Shown: piece after piece, positions 4,938 to 35,461 of the stretch
Layout: every line of letters starts with the position of its first letter
Position numbering within the stretch: position 1 is the stretch's first letter
DNA from: Lachnospiraceae bacterium
GTDB lineage: Bacteria; Bacillota; Clostridia; Lachnospirales; Lachnospiraceae
NCBI GenBank assembly: GCA_017622845.1
Contig: JAGAQJ010000012.1
Location: forward strand, 1-64,000
DNA: 64,000 nucleotides
Direction: 5' to 3'
Translations under genes and position numbers: made by a program
The notes under the pieces: generated by a model
Seen by the model: the letters and a program-made list of their open reading frames with translations, nothing else
Told to the model about the DNA's origin: nothing
Database searches by the model: none

Positions 4938-4994
4938 TAATGACTGCACAAAATGATATTGATTTGTTAAAAAAGCATACACTATAATGTCGTT

Positions 4995-5071
4995 AGCAGC
5001 AGAAATGAACTTAGTACTATTAACAGCCAACACAGAAGCCCCAAGGTGTGCGATACCTTGGGGCTTTCTTT
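4995..5071 (+). ncRNA. antisense-type small RNA, copy 1 (degenerate locus)
   Basis: TTGATT, an 18-bp spacer and TATAAT (4983-4988) precede a short unit that ends in a strong hairpin (AGCCCCAAGGT / ACCTTGGGGCT) followed by TTTCTTT. The unit matches the small RNA at 7237-7312 across the -10 box, body and terminator. The region beyond the terminator matches the 3' end of the toxin transcript of that locus, but the hydrophobic toxin frame is missing here; only a short frame starting MVPLLIQQQEA remains. The RNA itself is inferred, not observed. Confidence 0.55.
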
Positions 5072-5128
5072 ATATATGCGGCTTATATATTGGCTATGCT
5101 TCCTGCTGCTGTATCAGAAGCGGAACCA

Positions 5129-5236
5129 TCAGGCTCCACTTTTTAAATAATAATACAGCAGCATGTTGTAAGCATCCTTCAATCTTGACTCCTCTATTCT
5201 ATTCAGCAGCCATATGATTTTTTTCTTGTATACCAT
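5129..5236 (-). CDS. small charged protein in degenerate par-like locus
   Basis: 35 residues starting MVYKKKIIWLLNRIEESRL and ending YYYLKSGA, with AAGGAG 7 bases before the ATG at 5236. The KKxIIxxLxxI...LxxxYxxLxxYL spacing resembles small helical proteins often encoded near regulators in clostridial prophages and ICEs. It runs toward the small RNA at 4995-5071 and its stop overlaps the ATG of an 11-codon remnant frame. It may be the target of that RNA or an unrelated gene inserted into the old toxin position. Confidence 0.45.
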   Translation of the reverse strand: MVYKKKIIWLLNRIEESRLKDAYNMLLYYYLKSGA

Positions 5237-6940: not shown

Positions 6941-7236
6941 TAGTTTCATATATAATAAATGTATAACAAAAAAACGCTTGACAAGCAAGCGATTTCGTTA
7001 CTCCTTCTTCCTATAAATGGTAGATGAGCTATACTGATGTGCACACTATATAGTATGCTAAAAACTTTTTTATATAATATACCACAACTAAGATTTTGTC
7101 AACAACTATTTGTGTTTTTGTTAAATCTAAAATAACACGTTTTTCAGTTTTTGTAAATGTTTTTTATCAATTACCTTTTCATTTTACGAGTAATTTGCAT
7201 ATTGATTTGCCGAGAAGCATATGCTATAATGTCGTT

Positions 7237-7312
7237 AGCGACAGAAATGAGCTTGGTTCTATTAGCAACCAACACAAAAGCCCCAAGGTGTGCGAGACCT
7301 TGGGGCTTTCTT
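7237..7312 (+). ncRNA. candidate type I antitoxin RNA (Fst/par RNA II-like)
   Basis: TTGATT-17-TATAAT (7202-7230) is followed by a unit of about 75 nt ending in a hairpin (AGCCCCAAGGT / ACCTTGGGGCT, loop GTGCGAG) that has T-tracts on both strands. The body contains CGACAGAAATGAGCT (7239-7253). Its two halves, CGACAGAAA (7388-7396) and GAAATGAGCT (7405-7414), recur on the same strand inside the convergent toxin gene, so this RNA can pair in trans with the toxin mRNA at two patches and at the terminator. That is the layout of the Enterococcus pAD1 par locus. Transcription is inferred. Confidence 0.65.
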
Positions 7313-7337
7313 TATGTGTGTAGCTTATACGTTGCCG

Positions 7338-7421
7338 CTACTTCCTGTCCAGCCACTTGCAAACAAAGTATGCGATTACCTTGCTTACGACAGAAAGTAT
7401 AAACGAAATGAGCTGTTCCAT
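7338..7421 (-). CDS. candidate type I toxin: short hydrophobic peptide
   Basis: 27 residues: a membrane-spanning stretch (MEQLISFILSVVSKVIAYFV) followed by a charged CKWLDRK tail. AGGAGGG lies 6 bases before the ATG at 7421. The size and the hydrophobic-then-charged layout match Fst/holin-like toxins of type I systems. The gene runs into the bidirectional terminator shared with the opposing small RNA and carries both direct-repeat patches. It is proposed to act at the membrane when the antisense RNA is lost. A homologous but gutted copy lies at 5075-5130. Confidence 0.65.
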   Translation of the reverse strand: MEQLISFILSVVSKVIAYFVCKWLDRK

Positions 7422-7468
7422 CAGTAACCCTCCTTCCTGCTGCCAGTATCGGAGGCGACAACATATTT

Positions 7469-7497
7469 ATTCTACCAAATTCACATTATCAGGGCAA
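7469..7497 (-). promoter_or_regulatory. toxin mRNA promoter
   Basis: On the minus strand TTGCCC (7497-7492), a 17-bp spacer and TAGAAT (7474-7469) give a predicted transcript starting near 7462 and running about 180 nt to the shared terminator. It leaves a leader of about 40 nt before the toxin ribosome binding site. Confidence 0.55.
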
Positions 7498-7662: not shown

Positions 7663-7839
7663 ATGAAAGATAAAGACCTGCTAAAACTTTTGAAGAAAGA
7701 CGGCTGGAACATTGTCAGAATCAACGGCAGCCACCATGTTCTTCAAAAAGATGGGAAAACTACAGTAGTTCCTATACATGGCAAAGATGTTCCTATCGGC
7801 TTACTCAACAATATTCTCAAGGAGACAGGGCTTAAATAG
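7663..7839 (+). CDS. hicA: HicA toxin (mRNA interferase)
   Basis: 58 residues with the whole HicA signature: KDKDLLKLLKKDGWNIVRIN, then GSHHVLQKDGKTTVVPIHGK and a DVPIGLLNNILKETGL end. The family has a double-stranded-RNA-binding fold and cleaves mRNA; the conserved histidine in GSHH is the catalytic residue. AGGAGG precedes the ATG. It is followed 29 bp later by hicB, the cognate antitoxin, under one promoter. Confidence 0.92.
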   Translation: MKDKDLLKLLKKDGWNIVRINGSHHVLQKDGKTTVVPIHGKDVPIGLLNNILKETGLK

Positions 7840-7868
7840 CCCCTCTCCTAATCATAGGAGGTATGATT

Positions 7869-8246
7869 ATGTTATTTGTGTATCCTGCTATCTTCCATAA
7901 AGAAAATGAAGCATATTGGGTTGAATTTCCTGATTTAGAAGGCTGCCACACCTATGGCAGTTCTATCAATGAAACTATGGAAGCGGCACAGGAAGCCTTG
8001 TCCGCTTATCTTCTTACTCTTTTAGAACAGAAAAAAGTGCTTGCTCCTCCCTCTGATATTTCAACCATTCACGTAAACGATGGCTTCTCGTCTCTTGTAT
8101 CCTGCGATATTAACCAGTATAAGGATGCAAAAGCGGTAAAAAAGACTTTAACTATACCATCGTGGTTAAATGACCGTGCCATTTCTATGGGGATAAACTT
8201 TTCACAGGTTCTGCAAGAAGCACTTCTTTCCAAAATACAGGCATAA
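7869..8246 (+). CDS. hicB: HicB antitoxin
   Basis: 125 residues. The N-terminal half is the degenerate RNase H-like HicB fold (YPAIFHKENEAYWVEFPDLE, then GCHTYG); the C-terminal part is a ribbon-helix-helix DNA-binding segment (KKTLTIPSWLNDRAISMGIN, then FSQVLQEALLSK). It neutralises HicA and represses the operon. ATG 7869 is preferred because AGGAGG lies 7 bases upstream, against one base for ATG 7863. A terminator follows at once. Its C terminus is almost identical to that of the orphan HicB at 9688. Confidence 0.92.
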   Translation: MLFVYPAIFHKENEAYWVEFPDLEGCHTYGSSINETMEAAQEALSAYLLTLLEQKKVLAPPSDISTIHVNDGFSSLVSCDINQYKDAKAVKKTLTIPSWLNDRAISMGINFSQVLQEALLSKIQA

Positions 8247-8442: not shown

Positions 8443-9063
8443 TTACGCATCTTCCTGATTAACTCCAGTATCAGGAAATACAACATCCACAGTTCCATAA
8501 GTTTCGTCCAAACTACCATCATCATCAGAGCTACTTTTATAATGTTCTTTTTCCTCATCTGATAACATATCATGCCAATCCATTTTACAAGTATTAATTC
8601 CACCTTGTATGTATTTTATTTGATCCATTGCACTGTTCAACATTAACTTGGCATTCTCATCTAATTGAACATCTTCGTGCAAATACTGTTCAATTTTTTT
8701 ATAAGCTGTATTTGCTGCCGATTCAATATAGTTTATATGTCTATAGGATCTCAATGCTAACTCTTCTTCTTGTTCTTTAAATTCAATCTTTGACGATTTT
8801 TTCGTGAGCAGCCATGAGAAAACGATACTTCCAAAAATATTTATTGTAACAGACGCAAATACTTCCATTTTTCCAATTGTGGCACAATAAATTGATGATA
8901 TCACTACAATAACTGAAATTAGTAAAATAAAATTATCAAGATTAGTATATATCTTCCTAAGAAATACATATATTCCCATGTTTTTAGGAGTCAACCGACC
9001 AAGGAAAAAACCGACCAGTAATCCACTTATTGCTCCTATAATAACAATATCACTATTCGCCAT
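8443..9063 (-). CDS. membrane protein, probable toxin partner of Panacea antitoxin
   Basis: 206 residues with three hydrophobic segments near the N terminus (about 6-24, 43-64 and 68-86) and a cytosolic helical C-terminal half (RSYRHINYIESAANTAYKKI) ending in an acidic tail. The start codon lies inside the 3' end of the upstream Panacea gene (11-bp overlap), a layout typical of toxin-antitoxin pairs. Panacea-domain antitoxins are known to neutralise several unrelated toxins, including membrane-acting ones; this protein has no family I recognise. A 72-bp piece of it is duplicated at 7533-7604. Confidence 0.7.
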   Translation of the reverse strand: MANSDIVIIGAISGLLVGFFLGRLTPKNMGIYVFLRKIYTNLDNFILLISVIVVISSIYCATIGKMEVFASVTINIFGSIVFSWLLTKKSSKIEFKEQEEELALRSYRHINYIESAANTAYKKIEQYLHEDVQLDENAKLMLNSAMDQIKYIQGGINTCKMDWHDMLSDEEKEHYKSSSDDDGSLDETYGTVDVVFPDTGVNQEDA

Positions 9064-9502
9064 ACACTTTTCCTATCCTTTCGCCATAATAATCTCTCAT
9101 ATCTTTTAAGGCAATCGGGTTTCTTGAATAGCTACCTGGTGCACAATTTATTCTAGCCTTATTCCATGGTTCATCTGTATGTGTTATTCTTTCTAATTCA
9201 TCCGCAGTATAGTCACCATATATATCATATACTTTATCCAGAAATCCTGCCACCTCTGCCCCATCAAATAACACGGGTTGTCTTTCAACCGGAATTTTTT
9301 CCCATCCCCATCCACGATATCGGTTATATAAATCCGGGCATACCGGACCATGAACCCATGCTTCAAATCTATTAGGCACCAATGGTTTTCCATAATTAGC
9401 CAAGAACCACGCCTGTGCAAAATAGCACAATTTCTGAAGTTTTTTGTGCGACATTGATTCTTTTGTTAAGAAATATCTAGCAACCTCATAAATGCTTTCC
9501 AT
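9053..9502 (-). CDS. Panacea (SocA/DUF4065) domain antitoxin
   Basis: 149 residues matching the Panacea domain from end to end: VARYFLTKESMSHKKLQKLC, then YFAQAWFLANYGKPL, FEAWVHGPVCPDLYNRYRGW and DELERITHTDEPW. The domain serves as antitoxin to diverse toxins and is often found in mobile elements. AAGGGGG precedes the ATG. It is the first gene of a two-gene unit with the overlapping membrane protein. The partner's identity as toxin is inferred from this arrangement. Confidence 0.85.
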   Translation of the reverse strand: MESIYEVARYFLTKESMSHKKLQKLCYFAQAWFLANYGKPLVPNRFEAWVHGPVCPDLYNRYRGWGWEKIPVERQPVLFDGAEVAGFLDKVYDIYGDYTADELERITHTDEPWNKARINCAPGSYSRNPIALKDMRDYYGERIGKVYGE

Positions 9503-9666: not shown

Positions 9667-9687
9667 CTTATTATGAAAGGAGTAACT

Positions 9688-10083
9688 ATGAATAAATATT
9701 CTTATCCTGCAGTTTTTACACCAGAGAAAAACGGTGCTTATTCTGTAATTTTTCCAGACTTGGAAAGCTGCTACACATGTGGTGATGATTTAACTGATGC
9801 CATTATGATGGCAGAAGATGTCCTTGCCTATACCTTATATGACTACGAAAGGGAAAGTAAAGATATACCGGTACCCTCTCCAATCAATTCCATTTCCACT
9901 TCCGGTGATGAATTTGTAAGTTATGTAGCTTGTGACACACTGGAGTATCGCAAGATGCACAACAGCAAGGCTGTCAAGAAGACGCTTACTATACCTGAGT
10001 GGCTAAATGAAGAAGCTACTGCTCTCGGCATAAATTTTTCTCAAGTATTACAGGAAGCTCTGCTTTCCAAAATACAGGTATAA
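9688..10083 (+). CDS. orphan HicB-family antitoxin/regulator
   Basis: 131 residues with the HicB fold (YPAVFTPEKNGAYSVIFPDL, then ESCYTCG) and a C-terminal ribbon-helix-helix (KKTLTIPEWLNEEATALGIN, then FSQVLQEAL) that is nearly the same as in the HicB at 7869. ATG 9688 follows AAAGGAG by 5 bases. No hicA lies on either side. Its promoter has an operator of the same type as hicAB, so it could cross-regulate or cross-protect against HicA, or regulate the recombinase that follows. Confidence 0.85.
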   Translation: MNKYSYPAVFTPEKNGAYSVIFPDLESCYTCGDDLTDAIMMAEDVLAYTLYDYERESKDIPVPSPINSISTSGDEFVSYVACDTLEYRKMHNSKAVKKTLTIPEWLNEEATALGINFSQVLQEALLSKIQV

Positions 10084-12047: not shown

Positions 12048-12217
12048 GTACAACGAAATATTTTTATAAGAAAGAGACATATAAAACAAATCAATATCTC
12101 ATTTTTTGGGGACTGGCGAACAGTTCTTTTTTTATGCTTTGAATTGCTATCTGAAAGGTCAAAGCCTTTTGAATATAGAAACTAAAAACATCACAAATTT
12201 TTATGGAGGGAAAATTT

Positions 12218-12500
12218 ATGAGTAGAATTATTGCGATTGCAAATCAGAAAGGTGGAGTAGGAAAGACCACCACAAGTATTAATTTAGGAATAGGGCTATC
12301 AAAGGCAGGTAAAAAAGTTTGCCTGATTGATTTAGACCCACAAGGGAATGCAACACAAGGTTTAGGATATAATTCTGATGAACTGAATTGTACGATAGCG
12401 ACCATTATGGAAAAGATAATTGGTAAGGATTTTAATATTCATAAAATCTTGGCGTTTTGCATCATGATGAAGGTATGTCCCATTAAACTTCAATCAAAAT
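12218..12500 (+). pseudogene. parA/soj remnant, frameshifted
   Basis: The first 80 residues are a good ParA ATPase start ([20 protein letters not shown], then [20 protein letters not shown] and QGNATQGLG) with deviant Walker A and Walker A' motifs intact. At about 12448 the frame is lost in a run of A: the neighbouring frame continues [12 protein letters not shown], the expected ParA sequence, and then also stops. About two thirds of the gene is missing. GGAGGG precedes ATG 12218. It is probably left over from a plasmid-like or conjugative element. Confidence 0.8.
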
Positions 12501-12755
12501 ATACATATTTTTTTAATTTTTGTACATACTTTACCATATCTCAATCAATATTATTCAATATCTTTGTGTACAAAAAACGTGTTTGATATTACGATTTTTA
12601 TAAGCCGTATAAACTGCTACAGTATTTGTTTTTCTTTAACTACACTCATAAAAACCCCAGTATACAGGTTCAGTTCACAAGCTGATACAATGCAGTTATT
12701 TTGAAACTGTTCATTAATGTACTAACACCACTATATTTTAAGGATTTAGAAAGGC
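12501..12755. other. AT-rich gap after parA remnant
   Basis: About 250 bp with no gene I can support. It is AT-rich and presumably contains the sporulation-type promoter of the germination gene that follows; I could not identify one with confidence. Confidence 0.4.
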
Positions 12756-14165
12756 ATGGTATCTATGTATCAAAGTTTTGAAGAAAATAAAAATTATATG
12801 AAAAATCTGCTTCATGTTGATGAATCTTTCGACATTGTAAGCAGAGAAATCATAATTGGTGATAAAAATGCTGTATTTTACTTTGTTAATGGCTTTTGTA
12901 AAGATGATTTGATGCAGAAGCTCCTTCAATTTATGATGGGATTAAAAGCTGATGAAATGCCGCAAAATGCAAGGGAATTGAACAGGCTGATGCCTTATAT
13001 AGAGATGGATGTCTCAAAAGATTTTAATGAGATTGCCAAAAACATTCTTTGCGGTGTGTTTGCTATCATTATTGACGGCTATGATGAGTGTGTTCTCATT
13101 GATTCCCGTACCTATCCTGCGCGTAACGTATCGGAGCCGGATAAGGACAAGGTTCTGCGAGGCTCAAAAGATGGTTTTGTCGAAACGGTAGTATTTAACA
13201 CTGCCCTGATACGCCGCCGTATCAGAAGCACTGATCTTCGCATGGAGATACTCAGTGCCGGTAAAGCATCAAAGACGGATATTGTTCTCTGCTACATGGA
13301 TAGCCGTGTCGACAAAGGATTCCTCAAAAAAATCCGGGACCGCATCAACGATATCAAGGTAGATGCCCTTACGCTCAATCAGGAAAGCCTTGCTGAGTGC
13401 CTGTTCACTTCAAAATGGTACAATCCGTTTCCAAAGTTCAAATATACAGAGCGTCCTGACACAGCCGCGGCACAAATTTTAGAAGGAAATATCATTATAC
13501 TGGTGGATAACTCTCCTTCGGCTATGATTCTGCCTATCAGTGTTCTGGACATGATACAGGAGGCAGACGATTTCTATTTTCCGCCTGTTACAGGCTCGTA
13601 TTTAAGACTTTCCCGCTTTTTAATATTAATACTGACTTATTTTATCACACCGACCTTTTTGCTGTTAATGCAGAATCCTGACTGGATACCGCCTGCATTT
13701 GACTTTATCGTAGTGAAGGAGGATATTAATGTCCCTCTTATCTGGCAGTTTTTGATTCTTGAGCTTGCCATTGACGGTCTAAGGCTTGCAGCCGTTAATA
13801 CCCCCAATATGCTTTCCACTCCGCTCAGTGTGATGGCGGCTTTGATTCTTGGAGAATTTTCTGTAAAAAGCGGCTGGTTCAATGCCGAAGTCATGTTGTA
13901 TATGGCTTTTGTAGCTATTGCAAACTATACACACCCCAGTTATGAGCTTGGATATGCCATCAAATTTTTCCGGCTCATCAATCTAATCTTAACTGCGCTC
14001 TTTCAGTTTTGGGGGTATATTGCAGGTATTATTTTATTTTTCACAGCTATCATTACTAACAAAATGGTATCAGGTCAAAGTTATCTCTATCCTTTGATAC
14101 CGTTCAGCTTCCAAAAACTCAGCCACGCATTATTCCGGCACAGGCTGCCGGATTCGCGCGAATAA
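12756..14165 (+). CDS. spoVAF: GerA-family spore germination protein, SpoVAF-like
   Basis: 469 residues. The N-terminal hydrophilic half (about 1-270) carries the GerA A-subunit domain (LRGSKDGFVETVVFNTALIR, then RRIRSTDLRM and GNIIILVDNSPSAMILP); the C-terminal half has several membrane segments (about 285-305, 320-345, 355-375, 385-400, 410-440). GerAA-type proteins sit in the inner spore membrane and take part in germinant sensing or in SpoVA channel opening. The length and the ILVDNSPSAMILP motif fit SpoVAF, but no spoVA genes are adjacent, so a generic GerA assignment is also possible. ATG 12765 is an alternative start. Confidence 0.75.
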   Translation: MVSMYQSFEENKNYMKNLLHVDESFDIVSREIIIGDKNAVFYFVNGFCKDDLMQKLLQFMMGLKADEMPQNARELNRLMPYIEMDVSKDFNEIAKNILCGVFAIIIDGYDECVLIDSRTYPARNVSEPDKDKVLRGSKDGFVETVVFNTALIRRRIRSTDLRMEILSAGKASKTDIVLCYMDSRVDKGFLKKIRDRINDIKVDALTLNQESLAECLFTSKWYNPFPKFKYTERPDTAAAQILEGNIIILVDNSPSAMILPISVLDMIQEADDFYFPPVTGSYLRLSRFLILILTYFITPTFLLLMQNPDWIPPAFDFIVVKEDINVPLIWQFLILELAIDGLRLAAVNTPNMLSTPLSVMAALILGEFSVKSGWFNAEVMLYMAFVAIANYTHPSYELGYAIKFFRLINLILTALFQFWGYIAGIILFFTAIITNKMVSGQSYLYPLIPFSFQKLSHALFRHRLPDSRE

Positions 14166-35160: not shown

Positions 35161-35461
35161 CAAAAAACTCGTCCCTGAACCTGTTCGTTTCAAAGGACGA
35201 GGTATCTACCACGTGTTACCACCTTTTTTCACATAGAACTCACGCTCTATGCCTCTGCAAGTACGGGAAATACTTCCGATACTCCTCCCGATATAACGTT
35301 CGGGGATTCCGGCACAGTCTACTCTTACATATTATAAAATACAAATTTCGGTGTGCAGCTCCAAGATGTATTCACCCTCACTTTCCCTTGCGCCTCTCAT
35401 CTGCCGGCTGCTTTCTGTAAGTTCCCATGAAAGCTACTTCTTCTTTTCACAGCTTTTTATA
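35161..35461 (-). promoter_or_regulatory. T-box riboswitch, tyrosine specifier
   Basis: On the minus strand the leader shows the T-box AAGGTGGTAACACG, a specifier context GTGAATACATC with the codon UAC (Tyr) followed by A, and a terminator (CTCGTCC / GGACGAG then TTTTTT, 35162-35203) next to the T-box. Uncharged tRNA-Tyr would stabilise the antiterminator and allow tyrS expression. Confidence 0.92.

What the first reader, a model, noticed from the sequence alone, without database searches (positions are those of the whole stretch)
7202..7497. Candidate Fst/par-like type I toxin-antitoxin locus in a clostridial mobile element
Seen: a 27-residue hydrophobic peptide gene (7338-7421, minus) and an opposing promoter plus short unit (7202-7312, plus) converge on one hairpin with T-tracts on both strands. 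CGACAGAAATGAGCT in the small unit recurs as CGACAGAAA and GAAATGAGCT inside the toxin gene on the same strand, so the small RNA can pair in trans with the toxin mRNA. Known: this is the logic of the E. faecalis pAD1 par locus (RNA I/RNA II, direct repeats, shared bidirectional terminator). Inference: a type I module stabilising this element. The peptide and repeats do not look like Fst itself, so it may be a separate clostridial family.
Basis: partly seen in the sequence, partly recalled or inferred. Interest (0 to 1): 0.8.

Follow-up and report, generated by a model that had tools for sequence, protein, structure and literature searches.

The report
Gut-bacterial membrane-peptide toxin and RNA antidote
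The stretch carries a tiny gene for a membrane peptide and, facing it, a short RNA that can pair with the gene's message to block it; it looks like a well-made example of a known addiction-module design on a mobile element of a gut bacterium, with many relatives that often go unannotated.

Summary
Window 7202-7497 has the layout of a par/Fst type I toxin-antitoxin module: convergent promoters, a 27-aa hydrophobic peptide with a charged tail, a ~79-nt antisense RNA, one two-way terminator, and repeats shared by RNA and gene. In 29 of 31 related units and 49 of 52 (the sets overlap) the small RNA pairs best with its own toxin mRNA although the repeats differ between units: strong evidence for regulation by pairing. 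The toxin mRNA matches Rfam SpF66 (E = 6e-8, just under the gathering score), the mRNA of a pneumococcal Fst-like toxin. So it is not a separate clostridial invention but a branch of the Fst/par kind, with members in Lachnospiraceae, other Clostridia, Streptococcus, Ligilactobacillus, Enterococcus and Negativicutes, on plasmids and integrase-linked elements. By protein models the tie to Fst is weak: the window peptide matches none, and 1 of 37 relatives passes the NCBIfam Fst cut-off. A second copy 2 kb away kept antitoxin and terminator, seems to have lost the toxin gene, and does not pair with this toxin. Transcription, toxicity and element stabilisation are inferred.

The parts
7202..7230 (+). 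antitoxin promoter, TTGATT-17-TATAAT with TG before -10
   Evidence: -10 picked at the same place in relatives
7237..7315 (+). predicted antitoxin RNA (RNA II-like), about 79 nt; start inferred from the -10
7237..7271 (+). antitoxin stretch that pairs with the toxin mRNA (three blocks)
   Evidence: -37.9 kcal/mol
7277..7309 (.). shared two-way terminator hairpin
   Evidence: pairs with double changes
7331..7338 (-). GCGGCAAC, predicted partner of the 5' end of the toxin mRNA
7338..7421 (-). toxin peptide gene, 27 aa
7387..7429 (-). antitoxin target in the toxin mRNA: start codon and codons 1-12, with a 12-nt loop-out
7428..7433 (-). Shine-Dalgarno GGAGGG
7451..7454 (-). CUCC of the 5' leader, paired with GGAG of the Shine-Dalgarno sequence in the predicted fold
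7455..7462 (-). 5' end of the toxin mRNA, GUUGUCGC; start matches position 1 of Rfam SpF66
7469..7497 (-). toxin promoter, TTGCCC-17-TAGAAT with TG
4959..5072 (+). solitary second copy: antitoxin promoter, RNA and terminator (5036-5066) kept, toxin gene gone; end of the RNA inferred

Best explanation
A par/Fst-type type I toxin-antitoxin module. The minus-strand mRNA (about 7462 to 7267) encodes a 27-residue peptide expected to form one membrane helix. The plus-strand RNA (about 7237-7315) pairs with the mRNA over the start codon and codons 1-12, and the complementary terminator loops may start the contact; this blocks ribosome entry. The mRNA's own leader hides its Shine-Dalgarno sequence, and its 5' end pairs near the stop codon, so free mRNA is also held back. 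If the element is lost, the antitoxin is no longer made and decays, the mRNA is freed, and the peptide damages the membrane; this selects for cells that keep the element. Shown by sequence: layout, pairing specificity, conservation. Predicted by folding: leader and 5'-end helices. Inferred: transcription of both RNAs in this host, toxicity, antitoxin lability, stabilisation.
For: Layout. Cognate pairing: set 1, mean -37.1 against -18.8 kcal/mol for non-cognate pairs, cognate best in 29 of 31; set 2, -35.9 against -18.3, best in 49 of 52. Set 1, longest shared word 11.7 against 6.4 nt on average; highest mean of 5000 permutations 7.9. Toxin frame: differences 35/15/50% over codon positions 1/2/3 in 105 of 106 loci, 19 codons. 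Toxin -10: of 71 of 106 loci with a leader anchor, 87% have at least 5 of 6 matches, 20% when shuffled. 24 of 32 RNAalifold pairs (a coding hairpin and the terminator) show a double change in 24 mRNAs. 5'-end/stop-region pairing better for cognates than in any of 5000 permutations. Rfam SpF66 E 6e-8, whose namesake F66 is the pneumococcal toxin mRNA spd_sr109.
Against: No expression or toxicity data for this locus. The window peptide matches no Pfam or NCBIfam model at E up to 10, and 1 of 37 A1 members passes the NCBIfam Fst cut-off. In Pfam, unrelated membrane families score better than Fst_toxin on these peptides (best E 0.0002 and 0.0014 against 0.019), so weak matches may reflect a helix only. 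The family profile finds neither solved Fst nor PepA1 in the PDB. SpF66 39.6 bits is below the gathering score of 42. The window peptide has SVVSK, without the glycine of [P/D/S/T]XXXG. By longest shared word alone the cognate is best or tied in only 42 of 52 units of set 2, and the window itself ranks second in set 1. YUNR in the toxin-strand terminator loop in 12 of 53 units; Shine-Dalgarno paired upstream in single folds in 27 of 53 against 18 expected.
Confidence: 0.87

Rival explanations
1. Same RNA-regulated module, but its job is not element stabilisation: abortive response to phage, or a stress-tuned membrane peptide.
For: Chromosomal Fst-type modules have unclear roles (PMC7472228, sections 4 and 6 read). 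The module sits among other accessory systems: HicAB and Panacea/SocA.
Against: Mobile-element and plasmid settings: HTH and integrase or recombinase neighbours here and in L179; 394 plasmid records match at E up to 10, most of them weakly.
Confidence: 0.3
2. Decayed or detoxified module: RNA pairing kept, peptide no longer toxic because the motif glycine is lysine.
For: Lysine at this position in 2 of 106 family members; the motif glycine is essential in FstpAD1 (PMC7472228).
Against: Frame, leader and promoter are intact. In the other 104 the position is S 52, G 35, N 12, D 4, E 1, so the glycine is no family rule. The relative L007 has the same lysine with a clean frame.
Confidence: 0.12
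3. A regulatory antisense pair unrelated to toxin-antitoxin systems, for instance a small membrane peptide with a physiological role.
For: No toxicity was tested here, and protein models tie the peptide only weakly to Fst.
Against: Helix, W and charged tail; par-type RNA layout; plasmid carriage; SpF66 kinship to a locus annotated as Fst-type.
Confidence: 0.05
4. Chance features around an ordinary terminator.
For: The promoter count of the region alone is at chance.
Against: 0 of 2000 shuffles reach the duplex; conservation and cognate specificity.
Confidence: 0.01

Closest known systems
par of Enterococcus faecalis pAD1 (Fst; RNA I/RNA II)
   Same: Convergent promoters, shared two-way terminator, direct repeats that let RNA II cover the toxin start site, leader helix on the Shine-Dalgarno sequence, small peptide with membrane helix and charged tail (features as in PMC7472228)
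   Different: 27 aa not 33; tail KWLDRK, not the acidic tail; no PXXXG; family profile does not find solved Fst. The pAD1 DNA itself was not fetched or compared
Streptococcus pneumoniae Fst-like loci srf-27/spd_sr109 (F66, Rfam SpF66) and srf-28/spd_sr111
   Same: Toxin mRNA matches the SpF66 model from position 1 to 239; S. mitis copy L080 ends YFVCKWLDGKK against YFVCKWLDRK here
   Different: Tandem chromosomal loci downstream of fucR (PMC9812572, passages); DXXXG in L080; antitoxin pairing of streptococcal copies not tested here
Fst-Sm of Streptococcus mutans in ICE TnSmu1
   Same: Fst-type module beside a cI-like repressor of an integrative element (PMC10233336, passages)
   Different: Sequence not compared here
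Clostridioides difficile type I toxins (NCBIfam NF047374)
   Same: Small hydrophobic toxins; weak helix similarity, 16 of 37 relatives at E up to 10, best 2.4e-5 at 24.6 bits
   Different: Cut-off of 60 bits not met by any of 37; longer model (51 positions); layout not compared here

Membership tests
par/Fst type I toxin-antitoxin modules | Convergent promoters for toxin mRNA and antitoxin RNA | tested here: met
   (sequence only)
par/Fst type I toxin-antitoxin modules | Shared bidirectional intrinsic terminator | tested here: met
   perfect-arm hairpin usable in 31 of 38 and found in 53 of 74 toxin loci (one of the 21 misses lacked flank)
par/Fst type I toxin-antitoxin modules | Direct repeats giving trans complementarity at the toxin translation start | tested here: met
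par/Fst type I toxin-antitoxin modules | Leader helix that sequesters the Shine-Dalgarno sequence; 5' end sequestered | tested here: met
   Window fold. Among the 52 of 106 loci that have both words, leader CCTCC/CTCC goes with GGAGG (29) rather than GGGGG (3) and CCCC with GGGGG (17) rather than GGAGG (3); related loci, so not independent. Against: single folds weak, RNAalifold does not predict the helix
par/Fst type I toxin-antitoxin modules | U-turn (YUNR) in the toxin RNA terminator loop (not in all homologues) | tested here: inconclusive
   CUCG in the window loop CUCGCAC (read); 12 of 53 units of set 2
Fst/Ldr toxin superfamily | Hydrophobic helix, tryptophan, charged C-terminus | tested here: met
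   Window peptide itself; 106 of 106 loci have W, but almost all were picked with patterns that contain it
Fst/Ldr toxin superfamily | [P/D/S/T]XXXG in the helix (majority of members, not all) | tested here: not met
   Window has SVVSK; 27 of 106 loci have the motif
Fst/Ldr toxin superfamily | Score over NCBIfam NF033608 or Pfam PF13955 cut-off | tested here: not met
   Window peptide: no match. NF033608: 11 of 37 match, 1 over the cut-off (L119, 31.1 against 26; next 20.4). PF13955: 2 of 37, 15.3 and 14.3 bits against 36
Rfam RF02442 SpF66 | Score over gathering threshold 42 | tested here: not met
   39.6 bits, E 6e-8; 5 of 100 genomes of the same family pass it
Type I toxin-antitoxin system | Peptide toxic, RNA antitoxin neutralises it | not testable with these tools
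   needs expression experiments

The most novel reading that the evidence does not exclude
These modules form one large, mostly unannotated set of mutually insulated toxin-RNA pairs spread over Bacillota, including diderm Negativicutes. Each copy carries its own pairing code, so that many can sit in one cell, and a resident solitary antitoxin such as the one at 4959-5072 works as an anti-addiction RNA against an incoming element with the matching code.
Probability: 0.2. Interest if true: 0.6.

Novelty: new member of a known kind. Interest (0 to 1): 0.37.

Why it matters
It puts a name on a gene that the protein models used here miss: 1 of 37 family members scanned passes the curated Fst model, and none of the 40 plasmid matches listed has an annotated feature under it (that gene table is incomplete by its own description). 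It also gives several dozen natural toxin-RNA pairs, with in-silico specificity, for testing how par-type pairing is insulated between copies. The design itself is known.

Tried and rejected
A separate clostridial family: rejected, because SpF66 ties it to an Fst-type locus and relatives with a toxin frame lie in Streptococcus, Ligilactobacillus, Enterococcus and Negativicutes. Cross-protection by the second copy at 4959-5072: rejected, -18.0 kcal/mol, and 936 of 2000 shuffles of it pair as well. Hits C27 and C8 in the same genome: hairpin-like stretches only, no toxin frame found. U-turn as a family rule: not supported. Phage collection by DNA: no match. Papers: 'KWLD' with toxin-antitoxin gave 0 and 'Fst' + 'type I toxin' + 'Veillonella' gave 0; 'type I toxin-antitoxin' + 'Lachnospiraceae' gave 4, of which passages of one were seen, a prophage study naming other systems. 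The library is open-licence PMC only, so this is no proof that the branch is unpublished; PMC6563280 itself cites Ldr/Fst-like sequences in C. bolteae and a Fst-like one in C. asparagiforme (passage).

Rows dropped. Set 1: 54 loci gave 43 toxin frames, 13 loci none; 5 repeats of the same loci left out, giving 38; 7 of 38 without a well-placed perfect-arm hairpin left out, giving 31. Set 2: 80 loci fetched of 117 stretches, the scan having stopped at its limit, plus 3 further matches in them and 7 plasmid or phage loci = 90 places; 16 without a ribosome-site frame, then 1 without flank and 20 without hairpin, then 1 duplicate, giving 52. Among the 16 are chance-looking hits such as L096 (Parabacteroides) and L073 (Aerococcus). 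The copies from S. mitis (L080), Streptococcus sp. (L136), S. suis plasmid (L057) and satellite phage (L061) are among the 21, so pairing was not tested there. Of the 3 set-2 misses (ranks 2, 24, 33), the last two (L067, L127) have a poor picked -10, so the segment may be wrong; I did not repair them. Sets 1 and 2 share units: L016/L100 and L019/L102, and further pairs with the same peptide, so they are not independent.

Full report
Observation. The 300-bp unit is as described. A plus-strand promoter (7202-7230) and a minus-strand promoter (7497-7469) face each other across a 27-codon gene (7338-7421, minus) and meet at one hairpin (7277-7309) with T-rich flanks on both strands. The words GAAATGAGCT and CGACAGAAA of the small unit recur on the same strand in the toxin gene. 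A third block, GTTCTATTAGCAACC (7256-7270) against GTTCCATCAGTAACC (7415-7429), was not noted; it covers the start codon and reaches the edge of the ribosome site. Together they give one duplex of -37.9 kcal/mol from about -8 to +35 of the mRNA, with 12 mRNA bases looped out. 0 of 2000 mononucleotide shuffles of the RNA do as well, and the next best of the 84 mRNAs tested (its own included) gives -30.2.

Relatives. A DNA search hit 5 of 38 genomes of the same genus and 22 of 397 of the same family, the own genome counted in each and some hits being short hairpin stretches. Rfam SpF66 hit 16 of 100 family genomes (own included), 5 over its cut-off, and 0 of 14 control genomes. Units from these and from plasmids whose antitoxin fits its own toxin best include records titled Lachnospiraceae, Oscillospiraceae, Erysipelotrichaceae, Veillonella, Phascolarctobacterium, Selenomonadaceae, L. 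salivarius and E. faecium. Streptococcal copies have the toxin frame (L080, L136, L057) but were not tested for pairing. By tblastn, 394 plasmid and 11 phage records match at E up to 10, most of them at under 60% identity. The best plasmid hits include L. salivarius and M. gnavus (both E 4e-4), the latter on a 6.9-kb plasmid with a MobQ relaxase. Host: locus L009, from a genome of the window's genus, lies inside L131, a record titled Roseburia sp., and L019, from its family, in L102, a record titled Lachnospiraceae; so the host is a Lachnospiraceae bacterium, by inference.

Pairing specificity. For each unit the antitoxin (from the -10 to the hairpin) was paired in silico with its own toxin mRNA and with all others. 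Set 1: the cognate is best in 29 of 31, the other two ranking third; by shared words, 28 of 31. Set 2: 49 of 52, the others at ranks 2, 24 and 33; by longest word alone 42 of 52, ties counted. The matched words mostly lie in codons 3-8 or over the start codon, at the same place but with different letters. In the closest relative, L007, the window's GAGCT words give way to TTGCAG both in the RNA and in the gene. This is what selection on RNA-RNA pairing predicts. Weaver's review notes that DRa and DRb are poorly conserved and that RNA II of pAD1 does not protect from the chromosomal par of E. faecalis (PMC7472228, section read), so the principle is known; the scale is what these calls add. Negativicutes copies behave alike: L072, L101, L121 and one of the two L091 units rank first, the other L091 unit second.

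Other par features. The window leader is predicted to fold CUCC onto the Shine-Dalgarno sequence and its 5' end onto GCGGCAAC at the stop codon. Across 106 loci the leader word varies with the Shine-Dalgarno word: CCTCC or CTCC with GGAGG 29, with GGGGG 3; CCCC with GGGGG 17, with GGAGG 3; the other 54 loci have other combinations or no such words. The loci are related, so these are not independent events. 5'-end/stop-region pairing: cognate mean -13.0 against -10.3, below the lowest of 5000 permutations (-11.3), though only 6 of 106 rank first. RNAalifold on 24 mRNAs gives a coding hairpin and the terminator, with 24 of 32 pairs showing a double change, but does not predict the leader helix. 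Single-sequence folds show upstream pairing of the Shine-Dalgarno sequence in 27 of 53 against 18 expected.

Name. NCBIfam Fst (NF033608) matches 11 of 37 members of A1 at E up to 10, one over its cut-off, and not the window peptide. Pfam Fst_toxin matches 2 of 37, at 15.3 and 14.3 bits against 36, and unrelated membrane families score better. The PDB profile search finds no Fst. The firmest tie is SpF66. F66 is a 239-nt pneumococcal RNA with a Northern signal (table passage of PMC3395615), the length of the Rfam model; F66 = srn502 = Spd_sr109 (table passage of PMC12323649). PMC9812572 (passages) describes spd_sr109 as the mRNA of a par-homologous, uncharacterised Fst-like toxin, with Northern blots of toxin and antitoxin RNAs; PMC6212727 annotates the facing RNAs as Fst-family antitoxins (passages). 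The S. mitis copy L080 encodes a peptide ending YFVCKWLDGKK. I therefore file the locus as a par/Fst-type module by architecture and RNA kinship, while the peptide fails the curated family cut-offs.

Setting. The left 12 kb of the window holds three HTH genes, a DUF4041/T5orf172 protein, two HicB genes (one with HicA), a Panacea/SocA gene and a large serine recombinase, next to a GerA-type gene at 12756. L179, from another genome of the genus, has in order a gene that I take from its sequence for a tyrosine integrase, the module, a 35% identical DUF4041/T5orf172 protein and an HTH gene. Both look like integrase-linked accessory regions of mobile elements; the type of element and its ends were not settled.

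Second copy. 4959-5072 keeps promoter, antitoxin and terminator (83% identity to the unit over about 150 bases). After the word CTTCCTG (5099) the similarity resumes at the second CTTCCTG of the unit (7433), in the leader; beyond that word 9 of 2000 shuffles match the leader as well, and CTTCCTGCTG occurs only at these two places in the window. The simplest reading is deletion of the toxin gene between these short repeats (unit 7341 and 7433). Its RNA no longer fits the window toxin, and the CKWLD word has no second exact match in this genome, which is 95.3% complete.

Verdict. Real, well supported, and a known kind: an RNA-regulated membrane-peptide addiction module. The novelty is breadth and missing annotation, not mechanism.

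Noticed in passing
window 4959-5072: Solitary antitoxin copy with promoter and terminator, toxin gene apparently deleted between CTTCCTG repeats; its RNA does not pair with the nearby toxin.
   Followed up: partly
window 5129-5236 (-): 35-aa ORF behind a good ribosome site directly after the solitary copy; no Pfam match at E up to 0.01.
   Followed up: no
window 8443-9502 (-): Panacea/SocA antitoxin domain gene next to a 206-aa gene with only weak matches, several of them to membrane families: possible toxin-antitoxin pair.
   Followed up: no
window 7663-8246 and 9673-10083 (+): HicA-HicB pair and a second HicB without a HicA match among the genes scanned.
   Followed up: no
window 12203-12586 (+): ParA/AAA_31 gene that looks cut short (127 aa), just after the serine recombinase.
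   Followed up: no
window 35190-35459 (-): T-box leader (Rfam RF00230), 93.7 bits.
   Followed up: no
L091 376 and 696; L020 1050 and 1420; L136 96 and 439: Two toxin copies within about 400 bases of each other.
   Followed up: no
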